Positions 3,754 through 17,352 of a DNA stretch of 64,000 nucleotides are shown piece after piece. The stretch comes from a virus. Under the pieces are notes generated by a model. It searched no databases. It saw only the letters and a list, made by a program, of their open reading frames with translations, and was not told the origin of the DNA. Within the stretch, counting starts at the first letter, position 1, and every line of letters starts with the position of its first letter. The DNA lies in the IMG/VR virus record IMGVR_UViG_3300025012_000002, positions 124,001-188,000 of that record, one strand, 5' to 3'. The translations under genes were made by a program, and so were the position numbers.

Positions 3754-4437
3754 ATGCTATTTATACCAAAAACATCAAATAAGAAAACAGGAGCAATACC
3801 AGTATCATACTCACCTGAAGATACCTGCCCAGCTACTTGTAAACTAAAATACCATGGGTGCTATGCTAAATACGGGCCAACATCATTAGTGTGGAAGAAA
3901 TATTCACAAAGATTATCTTATAATGAATTTATAGAAGAAATAAAAAAGCTACCCAAGAAAACATTCTGGAGGTCCAATATTGCTGGGGATCTACAGGGCA
4001 GGAACAATAAAATAGATATTAAAAAACTAAACATATTAGTAGCGGCTAATAAAGGAAGTATAGGGTATACTTATACGCATTACCCACTACACACCAAAGC
4101 CGAGAAAGATGCTATAATGAATGCCAATAAGAATGGATTTACAATAAACTTATCCGCCAATAATATTAAGCATGCGGACGAATTAGTAAAACTAAAAATA
4201 GCTCCTGTAACAGTAGTGGTAAACTCAAATGTAATTAAAAATTTTAAAACCAAGGAAGGAAATAATGTCATAATTTGCCCGGCTATTACTAAGGTAGACA
4301 TAACATGTGACAAATGTAGGTTGTGTGCTAAGGCTAATAGAAAATCAATAATAGCATTTCCAAGTCACGGTGCAGGAAAGAAAAAAACTAATAAAATAGT
4401 AGGAGGGGATAATGTATATAACCGCTTCTCCAGATAA
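3754..4437 (+). CDS. GP88/DUF-type cysteine-rich phage protein, 227 aa
   Basis: The N-terminus has SYSPEDTCPATCKLKYHGCYA and the C-terminal part a CDKCRLCAKA cluster followed by IIAFPSHGAGKKK. The CPxTC...CYA start and the late CxxCxxC resemble the gp88-like family found in phages and integrative elements, whose function I do not know. Cysteine spacing could bind zinc or an iron-sulfur cluster. RBS AAAGGAGG; the stop overlaps the next gene by 26 nt. Confidence 0.6.
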   Translation: MLFIPKTSNKKTGAIPVSYSPEDTCPATCKLKYHGCYAKYGPTSLVWKKYSQRLSYNEFIEEIKKLPKKTFWRSNIAGDLQGRNNKIDIKKLNILVAANKGSIGYTYTHYPLHTKAEKDAIMNANKNGFTINLSANNIKHADELVKLKIAPVTVVVNSNVIKNFKTKEGNNVIICPAITKVDITCDKCRLCAKANRKSIIAFPSHGAGKKKTNKIVGGDNVYNRFSR

Positions 4438-5215
4438 GACGAACATACCAGTCGTTAGTGCACAGCAACCAAAAGTCTGTGTATGTGGGGCGACAATAAG
4501 CCAGTATGACATAAAATGTAGTAATTGCCTTGCTAAAGAAAGGTATATTCCTATAAATGTAAAATGGGAAAAACTTATATCTGACATGCGCCAATTCAAC
4601 CCACACTATAGGCTAGAATACAGAAAAGAAGAAATAATAGGAATAATTAGAGAAAACCCATTTGATAACGTATATGCAAAAATATATAGGCGTAACATCT
4701 ATGGTAGTGGTAAATATGCTTTAAGAATAACTACTAATGCGTGGCATAAAGCTAACAGGCTAAAGAAGGATTTTGATGCGAAAGATATAGCTAAAACACT
4801 ACACAAAAGATGTAGTGATATACTAGGTAAAATGACTGATGAGATTACTCTGCAGCAAGCAAGGGAACGCAAGAGAAAAGAAACATCAGAAAAATTAAAA
4901 AATGAGTTCTCTACTATCAAAAATTACTCAAACAATACTGACACCATTATTAATCTTAAGCATACTAAAATCTATACTAATATCAATACTACTACGCTAG
5001 GGGATGGTACGACAGAAGAAAAATTTATTGGCACGGTAACTATGAACTATAGCAGAAATTTTAGTTTAAAAGAATGCAAAGAATTGATAGATAAATTATA
5101 TAATATGTTTGGTGACTTACATACAGAGAAATGCTGCTCACTTATATTATGTAAAGAATTTAATTTAGATGATACAAAAATTATAGTATCTACTATAGAA
5201 AATATGCTAGCTTAG
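4412..5215 (+). CDS. zinc-knuckle protein, tandem paralogue 1
   Basis: A 267-residue protein with an N-terminal CVCG...CSNC zinc knuckle (residues ~25-45), then a W-x-K-L motif and a conserved block around FDAKDIAKTLHKRCSDIL. The next gene has the same architecture. Strong AGGAGGGG RBS. No recognised catalytic motif. The knuckle plus basic central helix could bind nucleic acid; this is inference only. Confidence 0.75.
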   Translation: MYITASPDKTNIPVVSAQQPKVCVCGATISQYDIKCSNCLAKERYIPINVKWEKLISDMRQFNPHYRLEYRKEEIIGIIRENPFDNVYAKIYRRNIYGSGKYALRITTNAWHKANRLKKDFDAKDIAKTLHKRCSDILGKMTDEITLQQARERKRKETSEKLKNEFSTIKNYSNNTDTIINLKHTKIYTNINTTTLGDGTTEEKFIGTVTMNYSRNFSLKECKELIDKLYNMFGDLHTEKCCSLILCKEFNLDDTKIIVSTIENMLA

Positions 5216-5227
5216 GAGGGTAAAAAA

Positions 5228-6034
5228 ATGAGCTCGGAAGAAGCTGTACACTGTGCGTGTGGTACAGAAAAAAAATCATATCAAGTTATCTGCAATGATT
5301 GCGCGGCAAAAGAAAGCTACACCACTAGAAATGTAAAATGGAAAAAGTTCTTTTCTGAAATAAAGCAATTTAATCAACATTACAAACTAATATATTCTAG
5401 TATGTACCCTGAAGAGGTGATAGGTGTGCTCAGAGAAAACCCATTTGATGAGACATATGTAAAAATATATAGACAGATTATGTATGGTATTACACACAGT
5501 AATGGTAGTAGTACACTAAATAAGTACGCTCTAAGAATATCTACTAATTCACGGAAATGTGAAGCTGCTAGATTAAAGAAGGATTTTGATGCGAAAGATA
5601 TAGCTAAAACACTACATAAAAAATGCGATGATATGCTAGCAAAAATGTCGGATGACATAACAGCAGAATATAATAGGGCGCGCGAAAAAGGAGAAAAAAT
5701 AAAAAATATAAAAAATGAGTTCCGGAATATAAAAAATTATAAAGATAATGATAGTAAGTTTGTTAGTTTCAAGAACACAAGAATAACGCTGTCAGAAGAA
5801 AAGAAAATGCTAGAAAACGGTATACTAGAAATTACTCCATATAATACAATTAATATAAATACAGTTACTCGTAAGTTTAGTTTAAAACAAATTAAGGGTA
5901 TGGTAGATATACTATATAATAAATTTGAGAATGTCAGAGACAAAAAAGATTTTGAATTTAACATTGGCACAAGTTTTGATATAGAGGGTATTAAAGAGGT
6001 AGTAGAAGTTGTGGAAACTATTTTAGAAAAATAA
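5228..6034 (+). CDS. zinc-knuckle protein, tandem paralogue 2
   Basis: A 268-residue paralogue of the preceding gene: CACG...CNDC knuckle, NVKWKKF, RENPFD and FDAKDIAKTLHKKCDDML all align. Overall divergence is high, yet about 43 bp around the FDAKDIAKTLH block are identical between the two genes (near 4763 and 5573), suggesting gene conversion or strong selection. RBS GGAGGG 8-10 nt upstream. Confidence 0.75.
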   Translation: MSSEEAVHCACGTEKKSYQVICNDCAAKESYTTRNVKWKKFFSEIKQFNQHYKLIYSSMYPEEVIGVLRENPFDETYVKIYRQIMYGITHSNGSSTLNKYALRISTNSRKCEAARLKKDFDAKDIAKTLHKKCDDMLAKMSDDITAEYNRAREKGEKIKNIKNEFRNIKNYKDNDSKFVSFKNTRITLSEEKKMLENGILEITPYNTININTVTRKFSLKQIKGMVDILYNKFENVRDKKDFEFNIGTSFDIEGIKEVVEVVETILEK

Positions 6035-6069: not shown

Positions 6070-7305
6070 ATGCACAGACACGCAATAAATAGTGAAAGAT
6101 TAAACAAAGAAATTAGTAGATTGATTGACCCTGTAAAAAACAAGACCAATACAGAAACCGAAGTGAAGCCACCACAGCCTCTAAATAGATCAATAGATAA
6201 AACATACAATATGTACACCTGGTCCTCTCATAGCAGAGCTACATTTTTAATTAATGCTTATGTAATACAGAACTATGTTAAATCAATTGCTGGAGAAGTA
6301 TTGTCCTACAATGTAGAGGCTACACAGGAATTTGAATATGACTATAAGAAGCAAGATATAATTAATGTTCACGGTCAGCAGGTATTTAATTATGAAAATA
6401 AATTGTATGTAATAGACATTAACAGCAACTGTGGTACAGTTACAATAAATAGTAACAACGATATATCTGAGATTATAGAAAAAATAAAATATGAAATAAA
6501 GTATAATAATCCAATAAGAAATAAACATATTCAAATAACTAATGGTAGTGATGGCGTCAATTATATATTTAAAAATCCGCCGTCAACTACATTTGATGAT
6601 ATAATAATGGATGAAAAAATTAAGGAGGACATATATGATAATACTATATTTCATTTAGAAAATCTAAATGATAATAATGGAATAATATTTTATGGAAATC
6701 CTGGTGTGGGTAAATCTGCAATATGTCAAGCTATAATTAATAAAGCATTAGAAAAGAAATATTCTACTTGTTTTGTTATATCACAAGTATATTATACAGC
6801 ATTGTCAGAATTTATAAATAACTTCCTTGCACCATGTATATTAATATTTGAGGATATAGATTCCTTTGGGCAAAGCAGAGATGTAGTACGGGATCATGGT
6901 GGAGGCTTAGCTGATTTCCTACAATTTATGTCAGGACTATATGAAAGAGATGATGCAATAATTGTAATAGCCACTACCAATTATATTGAACATTTAGACT
7001 CTGCTATCGCAAATAGACCTTGTAGATTTAATAGAAAGTATGAATTTAAATTACCCACTAATGATGAGATAAATAAAATGATTGATATGTTCTTTGGTAG
7101 TGATATTGTAGATTATGATCTTAAAAAATTATGTCATAACAAAAAACTAACAGGATCACATATCAAAGAAATACAAAGGACTTCTATGTTATTATCTAAG
7201 AAAAGACAAAAAGAAATTTTAGATGTATTTGAAGATTCTGTTAACATAGTATTAAATAACTTTAGTGTAGCAGGAGAGGCTAGTAGTGTGGGGTTTGGGA
7301 AATGA
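6070..7305 (+). CDS. AAA+ ATPase (BCS1/FtsH-like core)
   Basis: A 411-residue protein. The N-terminal ~170 residues are of unknown fold. The AAA+ core has Walker A GNPGVGKS (209-216), Walker B ILIFEDID (257-264), sensor-1 IATTN and an Arg-containing RPCRFNRKYEF segment, as in BCS1- and FtsH-type ATPases. A C-terminal helical lid follows. No protease or transmembrane segment is present, so it is probably a soluble remodelling ATPase; the substrate is unknown. RBS AAAGGAG before ATG 6070. The stop overlaps the next start (ATGA). Confidence 0.82.
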   Translation: MHRHAINSERLNKEISRLIDPVKNKTNTETEVKPPQPLNRSIDKTYNMYTWSSHSRATFLINAYVIQNYVKSIAGEVLSYNVEATQEFEYDYKKQDIINVHGQQVFNYENKLYVIDINSNCGTVTINSNNDISEIIEKIKYEIKYNNPIRNKHIQITNGSDGVNYIFKNPPSTTFDDIIMDEKIKEDIYDNTIFHLENLNDNNGIIFYGNPGVGKSAICQAIINKALEKKYSTCFVISQVYYTALSEFINNFLAPCILIFEDIDSFGQSRDVVRDHGGGLADFLQFMSGLYERDDAIIVIATTNYIEHLDSAIANRPCRFNRKYEFKLPTNDEINKMIDMFFGSDIVDYDLKKLCHNKKLTGSHIKEIQRTSMLLSKKRQKEILDVFEDSVNIVLNNFSVAGEASSVGFGK

Positions 7306-7580
7306 TACCCTCTTATGTGTCAATCTGTAGAGGATGTACACATGCAGTATACTGCGCTACAAACAAATATATTGATACCAAGAACAAATCTAGTTTACAA
7401 ATAAAACTACTGTGTAGGGTGAAAAAATCTGATAAAGGGGTGATCCGAGTAGAAACTAGACAACCAACTAAAGAACCCAGATTATATAATTCATTACAAG
7501 ACATGATAGAGAATTGTGAAGAACTAACATTAGAAGATACATTAATGTGGACTAAATTTATAAAGGAGAATAAAATATGA
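7302..7580 (+). CDS. small four-cysteine family protein (member 1)
   Basis: A 92-residue protein with CRGCTHAVYC near the N-terminus and a C-terminal helix LTLEDTLMWTKFIKEN. The C-x2-C-x5-C plus LxLEDxxxxT pattern recurs in several small proteins of this window (11404, 11987, 15432 and 57410; C-terminal half only at 13667 and 13891). Likely zinc binding; function unknown. It is translationally coupled on both sides by ATGA overlaps, between the AAA+ ATPase and the DNA ligase. Confidence 0.75.
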   Translation: MIPSYVSICRGCTHAVYCATNKYIDTKNKSSLQIKLLCRVKKSDKGVIRVETRQPTKEPRLYNSLQDMIENCEELTLEDTLMWTKFIKENKI

Positions 7581-9680: not shown

Positions 9681-11039
9681 ATGTTTCTATCAATAAAAAC
9701 TAAAGGGACAAATGCTGATAAGTTATCTTACGCACTAATGAAGCACCCAGCTAAAATATTTACTAAAGATAATCTTACATGTTTCTTTCCTAAATATTTA
9801 CAAGATGAATGTGAAGTAGTAATATCTTGCAAGTTTCCAGAATACAAACTATGGAAAGAATCTAATGCATATGATATAGACGGCTACGTAACAGATCGGG
9901 AGTATGCATTGTCCTCCTTATTTTTAAAAGAATTGAAGATCTCATTCAATACAGCAATTAACAACAGCTATGCAGAAGACATTATAGAATATAAAGATAT
10001 AGTTTTTAATTTTGAAATAAAATTATTACCTTTTACCACGTCGTTACCAACAGATATAATAGAACAGTTATTTACTGGTTGTGGCTATACTGGTGTGGTG
10101 GTTACACAGCTATCAGAAGATATAGAGTATCTGCGGAATAAATTTAAAGTATATTCTATAGAATATAAATCTATAGGAACCATCTCAGATTTGTTTAGTA
10201 AGCTGATGATACTGATTCCTACTGTAGATAACTACATTCATTTCAATCCAGATGCTGAACTGTTATCAAACCAGTTTGAAAAACATGGGCAGGGCTGGGT
10301 GAAGAAGCATCCACTACAGACATTGATACTAAATAGATTTATGAGGTATAAAAAGAAGTTAGTAGAAAAGTACTTTGCCAATACTACAGAGAACCAGGAA
10401 ACAGAAACTTCCTTAGAAGAAAAAGTAAACTTAGAAGAAAAAGTAAACTTAGGAGAACACAGACTGAGGTGGATAGAAGAACAGATAAAAAATCTTAACG
10501 TAACTTCAGTGGTTGATTGTGGCTGTGGGAGCGGAAGATTATTAGAAAGACTAAGTCCTAATAAAAATTTAGAATTATATGGAGTAGATTGTAATCCAAC
10601 GTCAATAATACATGCTAAGAGACATAATAGAAAACTACAGGATAACATATGGTTTAGTTCTTTACTATATAAAGATGAAAAATTATTAAACAAAGATTGC
10701 TTTGTGCTGCAAGAGGTTATCGAGCATATGGAAGAATTTCAATTAAGTAAAAGTATAGATAATATATTTGGTTATTATAAGCCTAAATACGTTCTTATAA
10801 CTACACCTAATACGTTATATAATAGTATCTTCGGGATTACTGGGCTGCGGCATAAAGATCATAAGTTTGAGTTTACAGATACAGAGGTGACTAACTGGGC
10901 TTTCGGTGTACAAGATAAATATAAACAATATCAAGTACTAGAAGTACCCTCCCCTATAGGAGAAGGTAAAGAAGTAACACAAAAAGGAGTCTTAGATTAT
11001 CCTACGTTTGGAGTTGTGCTTAAGAGGAGGGCGGTATGA
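9681..11039 (+). CDS. hen1: Hen1, RNA 3'-terminal ribose 2'-O-methyltransferase
   Basis: 452 residues, the usual length of bacterial Hen1. The N-terminal ~230 residues match the Hen1 N-domain, which activates Pnkp ligase (YALMKHPAKI, DREYALSSLF, ILIPTVDNYIHF, GQGWVKKHPL). A SAM methyltransferase domain follows: SAM loop VDCGCGSGRLL near 278, metal site EVIEHM (E345, E348, H349), and GLRHKDHKFEFT supplying the fourth ligand His. Bacterial Hen1 works with Pnkp and methylates the 3'-terminal 2'-OH at the cut before sealing, so the repaired RNA resists re-cleavage. Both Pnkp parts lie downstream. An 18-bp perfect duplication (10413-10448) lengthens the interdomain linker. RBS AAAGGGGGGG. Confidence 0.93.
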   Translation: MFLSIKTKGTNADKLSYALMKHPAKIFTKDNLTCFFPKYLQDECEVVISCKFPEYKLWKESNAYDIDGYVTDREYALSSLFLKELKISFNTAINNSYAEDIIEYKDIVFNFEIKLLPFTTSLPTDIIEQLFTGCGYTGVVVTQLSEDIEYLRNKFKVYSIEYKSIGTISDLFSKLMILIPTVDNYIHFNPDAELLSNQFEKHGQGWVKKHPLQTLILNRFMRYKKKLVEKYFANTTENQETETSLEEKVNLEEKVNLGEHRLRWIEEQIKNLNVTSVVDCGCGSGRLLERLSPNKNLELYGVDCNPTSIIHAKRHNRKLQDNIWFSSLLYKDEKLLNKDCFVLQEVIEHMEEFQLSKSIDNIFGYYKPKYVLITTPNTLYNSIFGITGLRHKDHKFEFTDTEVTNWAFGVQDKYKQYQVLEVPSPIGEGKEVTQKGVLDYPTFGVVLKRRAV

Positions 11040-11104
11040 AAGTAGTATTAAATGTTTGTGACAGCTATAGTGTAAATTGTCCTAAGTGCTTTCCGAGGTG
11101 TTAA
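11036..11104 (+). CDS. tiny cysteine-rich peptide, 22 aa
   Basis: The ATG overlaps the Hen1 stop (ATGA) and sits 5 nt after a perfect AGGAGG. It encodes MKVVLNVCDSYSVNCPKCFPRC. The four cysteines include CPKCFPRC, which could bind a metal. The strong RBS and coupling to hen1 argue for translation; the very short length argues for caution. Confidence 0.4.
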   Translation: MKVVLNVCDSYSVNCPKCFPRC

Positions 11105-11107
11105 CAT

Positions 11108-11368
11108 ATGGAACATGTGATTAGAAATTTTGATAAGGATATGCATGTGTCAAGAGTAACTGTGAAAAACGATTCTACTAGTAGGATTTTTGTATTAGTA
11201 ATGGAGAATATTAAAATACTCGATACAGCCATTAGTAGTTTACAAAACTTTAGGTACGAATTTAATCAACAATTAATAGTCAAAGCTAATGCCGCACTAA
11301 AAGCAAACCACCCATTTAGTATAGATAGAGACACAGAAGTTGCCGAAGAAAGAAATCGAGAGGGCTAA
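11108..11368 (+). CDS. hypothetical protein, 86 aa
   Basis: A small mixed alpha/beta protein (VSRVTVKNDSTSRIFVLVME, then a helix with LQNFRYEFNQQLIVKANAAL). No domain recognised. It follows the tiny peptide by 3 bp with only a weak RBS, so translation may be coupled. Confidence 0.6.
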   Translation: MEHVIRNFDKDMHVSRVTVKNDSTSRIFVLVMENIKILDTAISSLQNFRYEFNQQLIVKANAALKANHPFSIDRDTEVAEERNREG

Positions 11369-11403
11369 AGAACTGAGAATTGCCTTCTATCAGGAGAAAT
11401 GAA

Positions 11404-12006
11404 ATGACAAATAAAACTGCCGCAGAATGGATGAAAGAAAAAATAGCAAAATATGAAGACTCCTTTGATTTCAAGCACGAAGAGTTGGTATTGGGTATCA
11501 CCGAACAGATATGCAACGCGATGGAGGAAAAGGGTATCGACAGGGCGGAGCTGGCTGACAAACTGGGCGTATCTCGCGCTTTTATTTCCAAATTGCTGAA
11601 CGGGACGCCTAATCTGACCACCGAGACGTTGCTGAAGATAACACTTGCATTGGGCCGGGAACTAAGCGTAAAGCTGCCTCCAGCCGGTTTTACAACAGCC
11701 CATCAGAGTTACACAACTATATCTAGTCTAGCCAGTAGGCTGGATTCTGCCCCATGTGGGTGGACTAATTGTAACAAAGAACTATGTACAATATTTAAAA
11801 CAAATGAATTAGCAAGCGATGAATGGAAAATGTTACCTCCATGTAAATCTACAGTAGATAATAAATTTATGCTATATGAATTTGGAAGGAGTTATGAAAT
11901 AGATATCAATGATAACTTAAGTATGTTATTATTTCAGATGAAAAATCTTAGCTTAGAAGATGCAATCACAATTACAAAGGTGAAAAATGAAATGGGAAAC
12001 TTGTAA
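11404..12006 (+). CDS. HTH (HigA/XRE-type) domain fused to the four-cysteine family domain
   Basis: The ATG at 11404 is chosen because CAGGAG lies 8 nt before it. Residues ~1-95 form an XRE/HigA-type DNA-binding domain (KGIDRAELADKLGVSRAFIS, then LLKITLALGRELSVKL), typical of bacterial antitoxins and regulators. This part is visibly richer in G+C than the surrounding sequence, with different codon use. Residues ~110-200 are AT-rich and match the phage small four-cysteine family (CNKELC, PPCK, LSLEDAITITKVKNEM). The gene looks like a bacterial HTH captured in front of a phage domain. It probably binds DNA, perhaps its own operon; no toxin gene is adjacent. Confidence 0.8.
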   Translation: MTNKTAAEWMKEKIAKYEDSFDFKHEELVLGITEQICNAMEEKGIDRAELADKLGVSRAFISKLLNGTPNLTTETLLKITLALGRELSVKLPPAGFTTAHQSYTTISSLASRLDSAPCGWTNCNKELCTIFKTNELASDEWKMLPPCKSTVDNKFMLYEFGRSYEIDINDNLSMLLFQMKNLSLEDAITITKVKNEMGNL

Positions 12007-12319
12007 AAAATGTCCTAAATATTTATGTGATGAGTATAAAGATAAGACCAAAGATATTAACAGTCCTACTTGGCTTATTTGGATAACTAACATCTTAGTA
12101 TTCCCGAAATGTGAATGGGGTGTTATGGCAAACAAATTTAGACTATATTTAAAAACAGCTGACGCACTTCGTTATGTCCCGCATAAAAATTTTGATACAT
12201 TAAAAGAATGTATTGATTACATAGACAAAAAATTTAAGAAAGAATTAGATTTTGAAAGTGCGCTACAGTTAACTAAAATTAAACAGGGGATAAAGAATGC
12301 TAATAAAAATACCAAATAA
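11987..12319 (+). CDS. small four-cysteine family protein (member 3)
   Basis: 110 residues. CKKCPKYLC near the start, a later PKCEWG supplying the fourth Cys, a strand pair NKFRLYLKTADALRYV, and the C-terminal LDFESALQLTKIKQGI helix that defines the family. It overlaps the HTH fusion gene by 20 nt and the Pnkp kinase gene by 23 nt, so it is embedded in the RNA-repair operon. Confidence 0.75.
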   Translation: MKWETCKKCPKYLCDEYKDKTKDINSPTWLIWITNILVFPKCEWGVMANKFRLYLKTADALRYVPHKNFDTLKECIDYIDKKFKKELDFESALQLTKIKQGIKNANKNTK

Positions 12320-13670
12320 TTCTTTAATAGCAATGGTAGGTATTTCTGGTAGCGGTAAAGACTACTTTGCTAATAAATATTTTAAATCTGTAAGAAATAT
12401 TAATGCAATAGTATCATCAGATAAGTGTAGAATAATGTTACATACAGAATATAATAATCTCACACAACAAGAATTACAAAAATTTAACGATGGCGCTTTC
12501 ACTATTTTCCACGCAATGATAGAAGCTAAGTTAAAGCATAATCAACTTACAGTAGCTAATGCTACTAATCTTAGCCCTGAGTCTAGACACAAACTAGAGG
12601 AAATAGCTAAGGCTAGTCATGTTCCTATATATTATATAGTAATGAATACTCCACTAGAAACTTGTATTGAAAGAGACAATCTTAGGGATGAGTTTGCTAA
12701 AGTAGGGGAAAGCGTGGTCAAAAAACACGCAACAAGATTTAAGTCTGCATATTCTTTCCTCGAAAAACAAAATAATGTTTTCATAGTAAACCCAGAAGAT
12801 GAAATTACTGTAGAATTATTAGATACAAATAATATAATTAATATAGACCACGGAATAGACATAATAGGAGATGTTCATGGAACGTTCTCAGAGCTTAATG
12901 AATTACTCGGTAAGTTAGGGTACATAATAGGTGGGCAAAAAATATGGCACCCTAGTGGGCGTAAGATAGTATTTGTTGGGGACATTGCAGATCGTGGCCC
13001 GGATAATTGGCGGTGTTTAGAACTGGCTAGACATATGATGGAAAATAACACCGGATGGTGGGTCATGAGCAATCATGATAATAAACTTATGAGATGGCTA
13101 TCAGGAAGAAAAGTTAGGATAGCGGACGGCCTACAGAAAACAATAGATCAAATTCCGGAAGAAGCTAAAGAATCTTTAAGAGAGTTTATGTATAAGAATT
13201 TAAAATCTTATTATCATTTTAAGCATACTAATGGAGAAGAGATAGTAGTAACTCATGGTGCGTTTAATAAAAAATTTATAGGAAAATATCATAGAGACAT
13301 ATCAGATTATTGTATGTATGGTCCTACCCAAGGAGAAGATGATAATGGTCACCCAATAAGAATTGATTGGGCGAGGTCCTATACTGGTCCGTTTGTAGTC
13401 TTTGGTCATGCGGTATGCGGGGTATCCCCCAAAAAGTATAAGAACGCAATCAACATCGACACTGGCGCGGTTTTCGGGGGAATGCTAAGTTCTTATTCTT
13501 TTCCTGCGAAAGAAATAGTACAAGTAAAATCTAAGCAAATTTATGATGGTAGTAAACCTGAGTTGTTTGAGATACAGGAGAATACAGATTTAACAATTCA
13601 GGATATGATAAATACTTCTATGATAGAAGTAGAAAATCATAGAGGCGAAATTATTAATTTGAGGCTATGA
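12297..13670 (+). CDS. pnkp: Pnkp kinase-phosphatase (RNA end-healing half of split Pnkp)
   Basis: 457 residues matching the first two domains of bacterial Pnkp. Domain 1 (~1-180) is a P-loop polynucleotide 5'-kinase: GISGSGK at 15-21, SSDKCR, NATNLSPESRHKL, and a CIERDNLRD lid. Domain 2 (~185-440) is a calcineurin-like 2',3'-phosphatase/phosphodiesterase: GDVHG 191-195, GDIADRG 228-234, NHD 259-261 (preceded by Ser instead of the usual Gly), VTHGAF, VFGHA and INIDTGAVFGG. It makes 5'-phosphate and 3'-OH ends from broken RNA. The usual third domain, the ligase, is absent; a separate gene at 16261 encodes it. Coupled to the next gene by an ATGA overlap. Confidence 0.93.
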   Translation: MLIKIPNNSLIAMVGISGSGKDYFANKYFKSVRNINAIVSSDKCRIMLHTEYNNLTQQELQKFNDGAFTIFHAMIEAKLKHNQLTVANATNLSPESRHKLEEIAKASHVPIYYIVMNTPLETCIERDNLRDEFAKVGESVVKKHATRFKSAYSFLEKQNNVFIVNPEDEITVELLDTNNIINIDHGIDIIGDVHGTFSELNELLGKLGYIIGGQKIWHPSGRKIVFVGDIADRGPDNWRCLELARHMMENNTGWWVMSNHDNKLMRWLSGRKVRIADGLQKTIDQIPEEAKESLREFMYKNLKSYYHFKHTNGEEIVVTHGAFNKKFIGKYHRDISDYCMYGPTQGEDDNGHPIRIDWARSYTGPFVVFGHAVCGVSPKKYKNAINIDTGAVFGGMLSSYSFPAKEIVQVKSKQIYDGSKPELFEIQENTDLTIQDMINTSMIEVENHRGEIINLRL

Positions 13671-13888
13671 TGTGGAAAGCATTTATAGTGCCTGAACTTA
13701 CGCTAGCGTGGGACACAGTAGCTAATAACTATATGTTGTATCTCGTATCTGCACAGTACAGGCAGTTTAATACGTATGAAGATGCAATTTGTTACATCTA
13801 TAATATGGTGTATAATAATGCCCTAGAACTATCGTTAGAATCTATGATAAAACTTACTAAGGAATATAATAAATTAAAGGCGGCGTAA
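13667..13888 (+). CDS. small LSLESMIKLT protein, tandem copy A
   Basis: 73 residues; the second half (FNTYEDAICYIYNM, LELSLESMIKLTKEYNKL) is nearly identical to the next gene and matches the C-terminal helix of the small four-cysteine family, but the cysteine cluster is missing. The ATG overlaps the Pnkp stop. Confidence 0.7.
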   Translation: MMWKAFIVPELTLAWDTVANNYMLYLVSAQYRQFNTYEDAICYIYNMVYNNALELSLESMIKLTKEYNKLKAA

Positions 13889-13890
13889 TA

Positions 13891-14118
13891 ATGGGACCAT
13901 ATTTTAATCTACCAGAAGTAGAAATAAGCACCGTATGCCCAAACAGCTTCCAGCAGTACTTTAGAGTATGGTACGATAAAGAGACTCATGAGAACCGGAA
14001 TAAATTCAATACGTATGAAGATGCAATCTGTTACGTATATAATATGACTCTTAATAATGAACTTGAATTGTCATTAGAATCTATGATAAAACTTACTAGA
14101 GAATATAATAAAATATGA
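13891..14118 (+). CDS. small LSLESMIKLT protein, tandem copy B
   Basis: 75 residues, duplicate of the preceding gene in its C-terminal half with an unrelated N-terminal ~35 residues. This suggests recombination at the conserved 3' half. RBS AAGGCGG. The stop overlaps the next start. Confidence 0.7.
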   Translation: MGPYFNLPEVEISTVCPNSFQQYFRVWYDKETHENRNKFNTYEDAICYVYNMTLNNELELSLESMIKLTREYNKI

Positions 14119-14429
14119 GTGCATCTATCAGACAAAAAATTAAAGATAATAGTGCTTACAAAAATTGGAAAAACGAATTAAAAATTAGTAACGATACTTG
14201 CAGGGAGTGCGGTGCCTATTTACTCCTCGAAGAAAAACAAGTACACCATATGATAGAATTAAACATGTTAATAAAAAATGCTAAATTAAAGTTTACAAAC
14301 TTAGGTTTGCGCAATAGAGATTTTATTAAAAATGTTATAGTAGATGTATTAAAATATCAGCATGATAATAATATAGGAATAATAGTATGTGATGATTGCC
14401 ATAACAAACTACATGGGAGGTTGGGATGA
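14115..14429 (+). CDS. HNH endonuclease-like protein, 104 aa
   Basis: A compact HNH fold. CREC near residue 33 and CDDC near 95 form the structural zinc site; VHHMIEL supplies the metal-binding/catalytic His pair and CDDCHNKLHG the final H. It is short and lacks a NUMOD domain. It could be a homing nuclease or a small repair/packaging nuclease. It sits inside the RNA-repair operon with ATGA overlaps on both sides. Confidence 0.75.
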   Translation: MSASIRQKIKDNSAYKNWKNELKISNDTCRECGAYLLLEEKQVHHMIELNMLIKNAKLKFTNLGLRNRDFIKNVIVDVLKYQHDNNIGIIVCDDCHNKLHGRLG

Positions 14430-15064
14430 GAGAATACCATAAAATTAATACAATATACAAAAGGGATGAGCATACTAAGAAAATACTAGAGGGATATTAT
14501 TCTATTCCTGAATTTGAATATCTTAAAAATAACATGTGGTCTTTTAGTGAGAAGCTTGATGGAATGTGCATAAGAACTCTATATGATGGTAATCGTATAA
14601 CATTTGGTGGGAAGACAGATAATGCTAGTATCCCCGCCAAATTATTAAATAACCTTAATTCATTCTTTCTTCCATTGGAAAATAAATTCAAAGAAATATT
14701 TAGAATAGAAGAAGGCGCTCCATGCAACATATGTCTGTATGGAGAAGGAATAGGCGCAGGTATCCAATCTGGGGGAGGCTATTCTACTGTTCAAAAGTTT
14801 GTTTTATTCGATATTAAAATTGGTGAGTGGTGGCTTCAGCGTAAAGATGTAGAAAATATTGCTAATAAACTAAACTTAGAAATAGTCCCTATTATAGGAG
14901 CAGGAACTTTAGATGATGCAGTAACTTTAGCTAAAACTGGTATGCAATCTACATATGGAAATTTTAAAGCAGAGGGAATAGTAGCACGTCCTGTCATAGA
15001 ACTTTTTACACGCGGAGGCCATCGTATTATAACTAAAATAAAATGTAGAGATTTTAAATCATGA
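14426..15064 (+). CDS. Rnl2-like RNA ligase
   Basis: A 212-residue member of the short phage RNA-ligase family. Motif I FSEKLDGMCIR gives the adenylated Lys at ~43; motif III is LYGEGIG, motif IV AEGIVAR and motif V ITKIKCRDF at the C-terminus. The family joins 5'-phosphate and 3'-OH RNA ends with ATP. It lacks a C-terminal accessory domain, as usual for this family. It lies between the kinase-phosphatase and the separate Pnkp-type ligase, so the operon carries two RNA-type ligases. ATGA overlaps with both neighbours. Confidence 0.88.
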   Translation: MREYHKINTIYKRDEHTKKILEGYYSIPEFEYLKNNMWSFSEKLDGMCIRTLYDGNRITFGGKTDNASIPAKLLNNLNSFFLPLENKFKEIFRIEEGAPCNICLYGEGIGAGIQSGGGYSTVQKFVLFDIKIGEWWLQRKDVENIANKLNLEIVPIIGAGTLDDAVTLAKTGMQSTYGNFKAEGIVARPVIELFTRGGHRIITKIKCRDFKS

Positions 15065-15435
15065 AAACCCCTATATTATACTATCTTAACAAAGCAAAAA
15101 TAGAAAGCAAAAAATCAAATCATTACAAAGTTAAGATAGGAGCAATACTTGTGAATAAAGGAAAGGTAGTAAGTACTGGTTTTAATAAACTTAGACACAA
15201 CAGACATAGACAATACAGTAGATGGCAAAACTCTGTTCACGCTGAAATAGATTGTTTGTTAAAAGCAGGTAACTCCGCCGGAGGAACTTTATATGTTTAT
15301 AGAGAAAATAAGAATGGCGAATTGGCTATATGTAAACCTTGTATATTTTGTCAAATACTTATAAGGGAAAAGAATATTAAAAAAATAATATATACTACCT
15401 CTTACTACCCTAATTATGTGGAGGAATATATATGA
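15061..15435 (+). CDS. cytidine/deoxycytidylate-deaminase-fold protein
   Basis: 124 residues with the zinc-deaminase signature: VHAEID (H60, E62) and CKPCIFC (C94 and C97 in the PCxxC form). Family members deaminate cytosine in nucleotides or in RNA. At 124 residues it is shorter than typical dCMP deaminases, and the N-terminal basic segment (FNKLRHNRHRQYSRW) is unusual, so an RNA or nucleic-acid substrate is possible. Placement within the RNA-repair operon is suggestive only. Coupled by ATGA overlaps. Confidence 0.8.
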   Translation: MKTPILYYLNKAKIESKKSNHYKVKIGAILVNKGKVVSTGFNKLRHNRHRQYSRWQNSVHAEIDCLLKAGNSAGGTLYVYRENKNGELAICKPCIFCQILIREKNIKKIIYTTSYYPNYVEEYI

Positions 15436-15788
15436 ATAGTGAATCTTATTTAGAGAAATGGGAAGTTTGCAAAAGGTGCATAAAAGAGATATGTAAAAAT
15501 GTTCATGACAATACAGATGTGGACTATGTTCCTTTAGATAGTGAATTTAGATTTTTAGTTGATGGTGTAAATTTTAATATTGATACGATGTGTATGGCCA
15601 GCAGCAGTATTATAGGACATTCTATTTCGCCTAGGTTGAGTGGGCCAGTTATTTATGAAAATAAGAGTTTATTATTAATATTTACTTATATATTAAATGA
15701 TTTTAAGGAATTACAATTAGAAGACGCAATTAAAATTACCAACCTAAGAAATAAGCAACTAAAATTTATGGTAGACAAAGGAGAGTAA
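15432..15788 (+). CDS. small four-cysteine family protein (member 4)
   Basis: 118 residues: WEVCKRCIKEIC at the N-terminus, a middle DTMCMASS cysteine, and the C-terminal LQLEDAIKITNLRNKQ helix. It belongs to the same paralogous family as the genes at 7302, 11404 and 11987. Starts inside the stop of the deaminase gene. Confidence 0.75.
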   Translation: MNSESYLEKWEVCKRCIKEICKNVHDNTDVDYVPLDSEFRFLVDGVNFNIDTMCMASSSIIGHSISPRLSGPVIYENKSLLLIFTYILNDFKELQLEDAIKITNLRNKQLKFMVDKGE

Positions 15789-16124
15789 ATGTTAACAGAA
15801 AATCTTATGCACAAATGGTACAATCTAAAAAGAGAGACTTTACGTACACATAGGTCGCATAGTCCCGCTCTAACATCAGCTTTATCCTCTTTTGGGGTGA
15901 ATAAAGAATTGACAGAGTACGAGAGTATACATAAGCTAAATTTTATTACAATAGAAAATAAATGGGATTTTAAATTTGACTGCTGGTTAGACATAGTAGA
16001 AAAAAACATTAGTATGTATAAACCATCGCAACTGGATACCATAATAAATAATTTCGCTAATAAATTCTATAATGATATTATAAAAGAATTTCCAAAAAAA
16101 GAGTTGATATTAAATGAAGAATAA
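15789..16124 (+). CDS. hypothetical protein, 111 aa
   Basis: Immediately follows the preceding stop, with RBS AAAGGAG. Mostly helical and charged, with no recognised motif (MLTENLMHKWYNLKRETLRT at the start). Unknown. Confidence 0.65.
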   Translation: MLTENLMHKWYNLKRETLRTHRSHSPALTSALSSFGVNKELTEYESIHKLNFITIENKWDFKFDCWLDIVEKNISMYKPSQLDTIINNFANKFYNDIIKEFPKKELILNEE

Positions 16125-16271
16125 AAAATAAAAATTAGAAATCCACTAGTAGAAGCTGCTAAATTTAGAAACTCGGCTGGAGTTATGGATAGTAAATATG
16201 ATAAGCAGAACCGTAATAAATTAAAAGGAAAACTTAGACAAGAAGTAAAGGAGCTTACTAATGAAAATTGA
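16125..16271 (+). other. small basic phage ORF with uncertain start
   Basis: Directly after the TAA of the previous gene, the same frame reads KIRNPLVEAAKFRNSAGVM and then DSKYDKQNRNKLKGKLRQEV to a TGA at 16269-16271. The RNPLxxxAxxFR...DKxxRxKxK pattern looks like a short basic phage protein. There is no ATG at its beginning; candidates are ATT at 16134, ATA at 16128, stop-codon readthrough, or an internal ATG at 16185 (28 residues). It overlaps the next gene by 11 nt. Confidence 0.4.
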
Positions 16272-17352
16272 AATAGTACAAGACATTATAAATAAGCTAT
16301 CAACAAAAACAATACCACCAAATAAACTTATATGGTTGTCACCGACAATGTGTCCAGGTCCAGTATCAGACCTCCCTCAATATATGGAGGATCCTATTAC
16401 TACTGCGGAATGGATGTTTAATAATTCAGATGAGCCTAGTACTGAGTTGATTGCTGAAGTAAAGCACATGGGTAGTCGATGTACATTTGCATTTTGGAGG
16501 GACGGTGAGTCTGTGGCGTGGTCTAGAAATGGATTTACTTTTTTTGGTAAAGAATATGAACCATTACTAGATCAAATGAATAAAGATATATTTGAAAAGA
16601 TAGAGGAGGATTTTATATGTATAGATGCGGAAGTACTTCCTTGGAATTTTAAAGCCGCAGGATTAGTAGAAGAAGATTTTTTACTAGCAGGATACAGCGG
16701 TCTAGTCACTAAAAAAGAACTAAACAACTATCTAAATGATGCTAACTTAAATAATGATATCAGCAATTTAAAAGACTATATCGAAGTGATTAAAAGATAT
16801 TGTTGGGATGTTAACATAGATAATATTAGAATAGCTCCATTCTTTATATTAGCTATAGGAAATAGAATGGGCAAAAATGTATATAAAACTCATAAAGAAC
16901 ACCTGGTAGCTTTGGGCAGTATTTTTGAAAACAAAAATTATTATCAATACGTATTTTCAGAAGTTATTAGTAAAGATCAACTTGACATATTAAATTCTTT
17001 ATGGTATACTATTACAGATAAATTTAAATATGAAGGATTCGTATTGAAATATAATAATGTACATCAATACTCTAACACAAAATATCCACAGCAACAACTA
17101 AAAGTACGAAGTAGCGACTACCTCAAAATAATATATGGAGCTAATTATCAAGAACCTGAAATATTAGAAAAATTAAAACATAATAGAAGACTAGATAGAA
17201 AAATGAAAATTGCTTATTATGAGACTATACTAAGTGATAATGCTCTTAAAGTTTATCTAAATAATCCCGATAAATTTGAAGCTTATCATAAATTCATAAT
17301 AGCCTGCATGGCGGTAGACTACGGTGCAAGAGAAATAGATCCTCGACTATAA
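16261..17352 (+). CDS. Pnkp-type RNA ligase (adenylyltransferase half of split Pnkp)
   Basis: 363 residues equivalent to the C-terminal ligase domain of bacterial Pnkp. Motif I is IAEVKHMGSRC with the nucleotidyl Lys at 68, close to the EEKHMGSR of Pnkp; motif III is CIDAEVLPW, motif IV YEGFVLKY, motif V QQLKVRSSDYLKIIYG. The tail, NRRLDRKMKIAYYE to the last residues EIDPRL, follows the Pnkp C-terminal module. With the 457-residue kinase-phosphatase it adds to ~820 residues, about the size of one-piece Pnkp. Pnkp ligase is normally poorly active without Hen1, which is encoded upstream. RBS AAGGAG. Confidence 0.9.
   Translation: MKIEIVQDIINKLSTKTIPPNKLIWLSPTMCPGPVSDLPQYMEDPITTAEWMFNNSDEPSTELIAEVKHMGSRCTFAFWRDGESVAWSRNGFTFFGKEYEPLLDQMNKDIFEKIEEDFICIDAEVLPWNFKAAGLVEEDFLLAGYSGLVTKKELNNYLNDANLNNDISNLKDYIEVIKRYCWDVNIDNIRIAPFFILAIGNRMGKNVYKTHKEHLVALGSIFENKNYYQYVFSEVISKDQLDILNSLWYTITDKFKYEGFVLKYNNVHQYSNTKYPQQQLKVRSSDYLKIIYGANYQEPEILEKLKHNRRLDRKMKIAYYETILSDNALKVYLNNPDKFEAYHKFIIACMAVDYGAREIDPRL

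What the first reader, a model, noticed from the sequence alone, without database searches (positions are those of the whole stretch)
9681..17352. Phage-encoded Hen1/Pnkp RNA-repair system with Pnkp split into two genes
Hen1 (9681-11039), Pnkp kinase-phosphatase (12297-13670) and a Pnkp-type ligase (16261-17352) lie within 7.7 kb on one strand. Seen directly: the Hen1 metal site EVIEH and H-x-D-H; kinase P-loop and all phosphatase motifs; ligase KHMGSR with a C-terminus ending EIDPRL. Family knowledge: bacterial Pnkp is one kinase-phosphatase-ligase chain acting with Hen1 to heal, 2'-O-methylate and seal cleaved RNA. A split kinase-phosphatase/Rnl/Hen1 variant is known in some bacteria, but here the separate ligase is of the canonical Pnkp type and the carrier is a phage. 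Inference: the phage repairs tRNAs or other RNAs cut by host RNases and marks them against re-cleavage.
Basis: partly seen in the sequence, partly recalled or inferred. Interest (0 to 1): 0.92.

Follow-up and report, generated by a model that had tools for sequence, protein, structure and literature searches.

The report
Phage Hen1/Pnkp RNA-repair genes, Pnkp split
A large phage carries a bacterial kit for mending cut RNA and chemically protecting the repaired spot, with the usual three-in-one repair enzyme broken cleanly into two separate genes; the enzymes are known, but this arrangement was not found in any bacterium or other phage examined here.

Summary
A 194-kb phage record encodes a full-length bacterial-type Hen1 (9681-11039), a Pnkp kinase plus calcineurin-type phosphatase (12297-13670) and a stand-alone Pnkp ligase (16261-17352). 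They are collinear on one strand. The two Pnkp genes cover profile positions 2-454 and 473-851 of the bacterial Pnkp model, so the split falls at the domain boundary with nothing lost, and seven intact ORFs lie between. A second contig shows the same arrangement. Catalytic residues are kept except one: the kinase P-loop reads GSGKD instead of GSGKS. Trees put all three proteins with canonical bacterial Hen1/Pnkp. In about 1,577 bacterial genomes and 80 fetched loci, every intact canonical Pnkp was fused. Phage Hen1 itself is not new: XacN1 was annotated with it in 2018. I found 14 further phage or viral records with Hen1, all but one (a cut-off contig) with a Pnkp-type ligase nearby. Those are of a second, divergent type, except one fused canonical pair. 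Vibrio phages RYC and sm033 even fuse Hen1 to a T4-type kinase-phosphatase. Best reading: methylating repair of ribotoxin-cut tRNA. Function is untested. New variant of a known kind.

The parts
9681..11039 (+). [quoted passage not shown]
   Evidence: PF12623 E=4.8e-27; TIGR04074 E=2e-69; PDB matches to CthHen1/AvaHen1 methyltransferase and to the Hen1 N-domain 4dqz; Foldseek hits 3jwi/3jwg and 4e6n_B; metal-site residues kept
12297..13670 (+). Pnkp N-terminal half: 5'-OH polynucleotide kinase plus calcineurin-type 2',3' phosphatase, without ligase
   Evidence: TIGR04075 E=3e-99 at 2-454/851; PDB matches to CthPnkp phosphatase 4j6o and kinase 4jst; all bacterial phosphatase metal-site residues kept, P-loop Ser replaced by Asp
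16261..17352 (+). Stand-alone Pnkp-type RNA ligase (Pnkp C-terminal half)
   Evidence: PF16542 E=6.7e-52; TIGR04075 473-851/851; phmmer to CthPnkp ligase 3ty9/4drf; Foldseek best hit 4e6n_A, TM 0.85 by query length
11108..12319 (+). Between hen1 and the kinase-phosphatase: 86-aa ORF, HTH (XRE-like) regulator, 110-aa ORF whose end overlaps the kinase start
   Evidence: ORFs; HTH_3 PF01381 E=1.6e-11
13667..14118 (+). Two small related ORFs following the kinase-phosphatase, the first overlapping its stop codon
   Evidence: ORF list
14115..15064 (+). HNH-type ORF (14115-14429) overlapping an Rnl2-like RNA ligase of 212 aa (14426-15064)
   Evidence: HNH PF01844 E=6e-5; RNA_ligase PF09414 E=1.4e-14; phrog_548 RNA ligase E=4.7e-22
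15061..16124 (+). dCMP/TadA-like deaminase (15061-15435) and two small ORFs before the ligase
   Evidence: PF00383 E=8.3e-13; phrog_174 dCMP deaminase E=4.8e-19

Best explanation
This is a phage-borne member of the canonical bacterial Hen1/Pnkp RNA-repair lineage in which the Pnkp gene has been split at the phosphatase-ligase boundary. Proposed action: (1) the kinase-phosphatase protein phosphorylates the 5'-OH end and removes the 2',3'-cyclic phosphate of an RNA cut by a metal-independent RNase; (2) Hen1 methylates the freed 3'-terminal ribose 2'-OH and its N-domain activates the separate ligase; (3) the ligase seals the break, leaving a 2'-O-methyl that blocks re-cleavage at the same site. 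The likeliest substrates are tRNAs cut by host anticodon nucleases or other ribotoxins during infection. Shown here: gene identities, completeness, active-site residues, collinearity, and family placement. Inferred: assembly into one complex, the reactions, the substrate and the counter-defence role.
For: Profiles. Solved-structure matches; Foldseek of AlphaFold models. Of columns at least 97% conserved in bacterial Pnkp/Hen1, the window keeps 70/99, 65/110 and 53/82, including the catalytic residues. Gene order Hen1, kinase-phosphatase, ligase equals the order in bacterial hen1-pnkp loci. All three trees place the window in the canonical clade. Across the other phage and viral records, Hen1 and a Pnkp-type ligase sit together. 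The phage also has a CCA-adding enzyme, an Rnl2-like ligase and two tRNA genes. The biochemistry (Hen1-dependent ligation, methylation protecting from the same ribotoxin, three separate proteins able to assemble) is established for bacterial relatives (PMC4411300).
Against: No activity, expression or complex was tested. The kinase P-loop has Asp where the bacterial enzymes have Ser, which could weaken the kinase. All three proteins are diverged (about 25-37% identity to bacterial ones, long branches). The host is unknown, so no anticodon nuclease could be matched.
Confidence: 0.72

Rival explanations
1. The three genes are real but act on other RNAs, for example phage mRNA or tRNA cut by the phage's own nucleases, or in tRNA maintenance, rather than in counter-defence.
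For: The phage carries its own HNH ORF, CCA-adding enzyme and RNA ligase; no host anticodon nuclease could be shown.
Against: The known bacterial system repairs ribotoxin-cut tRNA (PMC4411300), and phage tRNA repair against host anticodon nucleases is the established precedent in T4.
Confidence: 0.2
2. The kinase-phosphatase and the ligase no longer work with Hen1: each has been recruited separately (for example DNA or nucleotide end processing), and gene proximity is a relic of an ancestral operon.
For: The genes are separated by 1.3 kb and 2.6 kb of other ORFs; P-loop Ser to Asp.
Against: Hen1_L, the ligase-activating region, is kept and matches above its cut-off, and the model of the ligase matches the Hen1-bound Pnkp ligase structure best. 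In all viral records but one truncated contig, Hen1 keeps a Pnkp-type ligase close by.
Confidence: 0.12
3. The split is an artefact or the start of decay: a frameshift, assembly break or pseudogene.
For: Some bacterial 'splits' in the samples were N-gaps, frameshifts or truncations.
Against: Both halves are complete, each has its own start and upstream ribosome-binding-like stretch, seven intact ORFs lie between, and a second contig agrees.
Confidence: 0.03

Closest known systems
[quoted passage not shown]
   Same: Same three activities, same phosphatase type, same ligase type, Hen1 with ligase-activating N-domain, same gene order; grouped with it in all three trees
   Different: Pnkp is one chain of about 850-900 aa in bacteria; here it is two genes, carried by a phage, with P-loop GKD and only about 25-37% identity
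Bacterial Pnkp1-Rnl-Hen1 complex (Capnocytophaga gingivalis; PMC4411300)
   Same: Three separate proteins with Hen1, a stand-alone ligase and a kinase-phosphatase
   Different: Pnkp1 has a T4-type HAD phosphatase and Rnl/Hen1 belong to the other clade; the window has a calcineurin-type phosphatase and canonical ligase
Xanthomonas phage XacN1 ORF197/ORF198 (PMC5852040)
   Same: Phage-borne Hen1 beside a stand-alone Pnkp-type ligase
   Different: Divergent clade; ORF197, called PNKP/metallophosphoesterase, is by profile the ligase alone, with a small separate kinase ORF199 next to Hen1
Vibrio phages RYC and vB_VpaM_sm033
   Same: Phage-borne Hen1 and stand-alone Pnkp-type ligase
   Different: Hen1 is fused to a kinase and a DxDGT (HAD, T4-type) phosphatase in one protein; divergent clade
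IMG/VR contig 2225789004_000003 (locus L180)
   Same: Viral record with canonical Hen1 and canonical Pnkp
   Different: Pnkp is fused (851 aa) and about 49% identical to a bacterial one, i.e. close to bacteria
T4 Pnkp + Rnl1 tRNA repair
   Same: Phage-encoded end healing and sealing of cut tRNA
   Different: No Hen1 methylation; unrelated phosphatase; different ligase family

Membership tests
Canonical Pnkp-Hen1 RNA-repair system | Hen1 with N-terminal ligase-activating domain and HEN1-type methyltransferase with E..EH / H..H metal site | tested here: met
   PF12623 95 bits over cut-off 23; E345, E348, H349, H394 kept
Canonical Pnkp-Hen1 RNA-repair system | P-loop kinase domain of the Pnkp type | tested here: inconclusive
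   Domain matches CthPnkp kinase E about 4e-21 and D42/R45 are kept, but the P-loop Ser is Asp
Canonical Pnkp-Hen1 RNA-repair system | Calcineurin-type phosphatase with full metal site | tested here: met
   D192, H194, D229, R233, N259, H260, H320, H371, D388 kept; 4j6o E=1e-50
Canonical Pnkp-Hen1 RNA-repair system | Pnkp-type ligase with adenylated Lys and module that Hen1 acts on | tested here: met
   K68, R73, E124, E258, K263, K281, R283 kept; best fold match Pnkp-C/Hen1-N 4e6n_A. The region after about residue 165 is shorter than in CthPnkp
Canonical Pnkp-Hen1 RNA-repair system | Kinase, phosphatase and ligase in one polypeptide | tested here: not met
   Two genes 2.6 kb apart; hence 'variant of', not plain member
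Canonical Pnkp-Hen1 RNA-repair system | Hen1-dependent repair with 2'-O-methylation | not testable with these tools
   Needs purified proteins
Pnkp1-Rnl-Hen1 complex | T4-type kinase with HAD (DxDGT) phosphatase | tested here: not met
   Calcineurin-type phosphatase; bacterial Pnkp1 loci L177/L178 show DLDGT
Pnkp1-Rnl-Hen1 complex | Ligase and Hen1 of the Rnl clade | tested here: not met
   Window falls in the other clade, split supported 100/100 (ligase) and 100 (Hen1)

The most novel reading that the evidence does not exclude
Large phages of several kinds carry Hen1-centred methylating RNA repair as a counter-defence that not only mends host-cut tRNAs but makes them immune to the same nuclease, with the end-healing part freely exchanged (fused, split, T4-type or calcineurin-type); the window shows the canonical form working as three separate proteins.
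Probability: 0.5. Interest if true: 0.78.

Novelty: new variant of a known kind. Interest (0 to 1): 0.62.

Why it matters
Phage tRNA repair is known from T4, but a repair that also blocks re-cutting would be a stronger answer to anticodon nucleases. A natural split of canonical Pnkp gives separate healing and sealing proteins, which could make it easier to reconstitute and crystallise the canonical complex, whose full structure could not be obtained with the fused enzyme as of the 2015 paper (PMC4411300). The wider set of phage Hen1/ligase loci found here, with exchanged healing modules, is a ready test set for counter-defence.

Tried and rejected
The Rnl-type reading (Pnkp1-Rnl-Hen1) was rejected by phosphatase type and trees. 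Artefactual split was rejected by the second contig and seven intact intervening ORFs. Bacterial 'splits' turned out to be an N-gap (L074), apparent frameshifts (L106, G1519, G296), a truncated ligase beside an integrase-like ORF (L062), or a decayed copy (G748). Single-protein scans of IMG/VR with the window's ligase and Hen1 found only the near-identical contig; the ligase-profile scan added none. A nine-sequence ligase alignment was too diverse to scan with. Rfam found nothing in the window or in interrupted viral loci. A distant relative by terminase, Virus Rctr197k (36% identity), gave no Hen1 or ligase match in the tblastn searches and did not inform the locus. A review I wanted to check (NAR, doi gkw722, recalled from memory) is not in the library.
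Full report
WHAT IS THERE. The window is bases 124001-188000 of a 194,269-base virus record. The 452-aa protein at 9681-11039 matches the Hen1 ligase-activating region (PF12623, E=4.8e-27) and the bacterial Hen1 model nearly end to end (TIGR04074, E=2e-69; its score of 234 bits is below that model's strict cut-off of 340, as expected for a diverged copy). The 457-aa protein at 12297-13670 matches positions 2-454 of the 851-position bacterial Pnkp model (E=3e-99) and the 363-aa protein at 16261-17352 matches positions 473-851 (E=1.7e-45). Together they cover nearly the whole of Pnkp, cut between phosphatase and ligase.

NOT AN ARTEFACT. Between the two Pnkp genes are seven intact, tightly packed ORFs, several with overlapping ends. 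The ligase, the kinase-phosphatase and Hen1 each have a purine-rich stretch just before their start. A second, 45-kb contig (IMGVR_UViG_3300024999_000175) is 99.995% identical over 21 kb across the whole region. Whether it is an independent sample is not known.

IT IS A PHAGE. Profiles find a terminase, portal, DNA polymerase A, helicase, ribonucleotide reductase, a sigma factor and a CCA-adding tRNA nucleotidyltransferase. Only two tRNA genes were found, Thr(TGT) and Gln(TTG). The closest terminase in named phages is 36% identical, in Virus Rctr197k. Host unknown.

ACTIVE SITES. Against 73 bacterial Pnkps and 60 bacterial Hen1s, columns at least 97% conserved are kept in 70/99 (kinase-phosphatase), 65/110 (ligase) and 53/82 (Hen1) cases. 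These include the Hen1 metal site, the phosphatase metal site, the ligase lysine and nucleotide-binding residues, and the kinase Asp42/Arg45. Which residues are catalytic rests on family knowledge of the Clostridium thermocellum enzymes. The exception is the P-loop: GSGKD in place of GSGKS. The small kinases beside Hen1 in phages XacN1 and RAS14 also read GSGKD, so the change may be tolerated in phages; that is inference.

STRUCTURE. AlphaFold2 models (Hen1 pLDDT 77.5; ligase pLDDT 82.4, pTM 0.82) match, in the PDB, bacterial Hen1 methyltransferase and Hen1-N structures and, best of all for the ligase, the Pnkp-C/Hen1-N complex 4e6n (TM 0.85 by query length), ahead of Rnl. The models used bacterial relatives in their alignments, so this supports rather than independently proves the family.

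BACTERIAL COMPARISON. Eighty bacterial loci found with the ligase motifs carry a fused Pnkp of about 820-930 aa in nearly all cases, usually with Hen1 just upstream on the same strand. Some shorter frames run off a contig end. The apparent splits are an N-gap, a frameshift and a truncated ligase beside an integrase-like ORF. In about 1,577 genomes of four phyla every intact canonical ligase lies in a frame of over 850 aa; others are broken copies (for one) or four Rnl-type ligases of about 395-401 aa. Two of those four loci were read and carry Hen1 and a DxDGT-bearing Pnkp1 beside the ligase. One genome of the Bacillota group has a fused copy of the divergent type.

OTHER PHAGES. In 50,697 named phage records only Vibrio RYC and sm033, Xanthomonas XacN1 and Stenotrophomonas CM1/RAS14 gave a Hen1 with a Pnkp-type ligase. 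RYC and sm033 fuse Hen1 to a kinase and a DxDGT phosphatase. XacN1 ORF197, described as PNKP in PMC5852040 and annotated as a metallophosphoesterase, is by profile and sequence the ligase alone. A Hen1-profile scan of IMG/VR gave nine further contigs besides the near-identical one. Eight hold a Pnkp ligase; the ninth is a 9-kb fragment ending within a kinase next to Hen1. In four of these the Pnkp is fused; in others it is interrupted or the ligase stands alone. None reaches the Hen1_L cut-off, while the window does easily. A scan with canonical bacterial ligases added one phage-like contig with canonical Hen1 and fused canonical Pnkp (L180) and a 6-kb contig with a fused canonical Pnkp fragment and no Hen1 (L179). 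The scans use short degenerate patterns, so more relatives may exist.

TREES. Ligase, Hen1 and kinase-phosphatase trees all separate two clades with full support: canonical bacterial Hen1/Pnkp, and a divergent clade holding Rnl (ligase and Hen1 trees), the other phage copies included in the trees and one Bacillota-group copy. L180 was found later and not included. The window falls in the canonical clade in all three, on a long branch (the Hen1 tree is a quick one, and the ligase tree's bootstrap had not settled). Its exact donor cannot be named.

MECHANISM. From PMC4411300: the Hen1 N-domain unlocks the Pnkp ligase, Hen1 methylates the 2'-OH responsible for cleavage, and the repaired RNA resists the same ribotoxin; three separate proteins can form such a complex. 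Applying this to the window is inference. Retention of Hen1_L with a stand-alone ligase makes Hen1-dependent sealing the likeliest scheme. The phage's CCA-adding enzyme and its Rnl2-like ligase fit a tRNA-repair theme, and a jumbo-phage survey describes such repair sets without using the name Hen1 (PMC7824862).

VERDICT. Ordinary in parts, unusual in arrangement: a new variant of the canonical Hen1/Pnkp system, in a phage, with Pnkp split at the domain boundary. No published report of such a split, or of a tested phage Hen1, was found in the held library, which lacks many subscription papers.

Noticed in passing
L010:5094-8311 and L011:3256-6665: Vibrio phages RYC and sm033 encode Hen1 fused to a kinase and a DxDGT phosphatase in one ~720-aa protein, next to a stand-alone Pnkp-type ligase annotated only as hypothetical.
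   Followed up: partly
L016:3019-6093: XacN1 ORF197 (called metallophosphoesterase/PNKP) is a stand-alone Pnkp-type ligase; ORF198 is Hen1 and ORF199 a small kinase with a GKD P-loop. RAS14 has the same trio.
   Followed up: yes
L022, L024, L029, L030 (fused); L023, L025, L026 (interrupted): Divergent phage Hen1/Pnkp loci; in L026 about 1.4 kb interrupts the phosphatase region with little loss, and in L025 an ORF (transposase-like by eye) sits where the start of the ligase is missing.
   Followed up: partly
L026:7218-7760, L022:7263-7808, L028:1764-2318: A KptA-like (RNA 2'-phosphotransferase) ORF, judged by eye, lies a few kb upstream of Hen1 in three related viral contigs.
   Followed up: no
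L007:1530-2714 (genome about 96.5-97.7 kb): CCA-adding tRNA nucleotidyltransferase in the same phage, phrog_2244 E=1e-75.
   Followed up: partly
window 14115-15064: HNH ORF overlapping an Rnl2-like RNA ligase of only 212 aa; the jumbo-phage survey describes RNA ligases fused to N-terminal HNH domains.
   Followed up: partly
window 7302-7580, 11380-12006, 11987-12319, 13667-14118, 15432-15788: Several small ORFs share a similar C-terminal stretch (such as LSLESMIKLTKEYNK), including the end of the HTH protein; function unknown.
   Followed up: no
window 4412-5215 and 5228-6034: Two adjacent related ORFs; a 220-base stretch within them is 76% identical in DNA.
   Followed up: no
L176:6845-10699: A bacterial genome in the Bacillota search group carries a divergent-type Hen1 and fused Pnkp close to that of viral contig L024.
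   Followed up: partly
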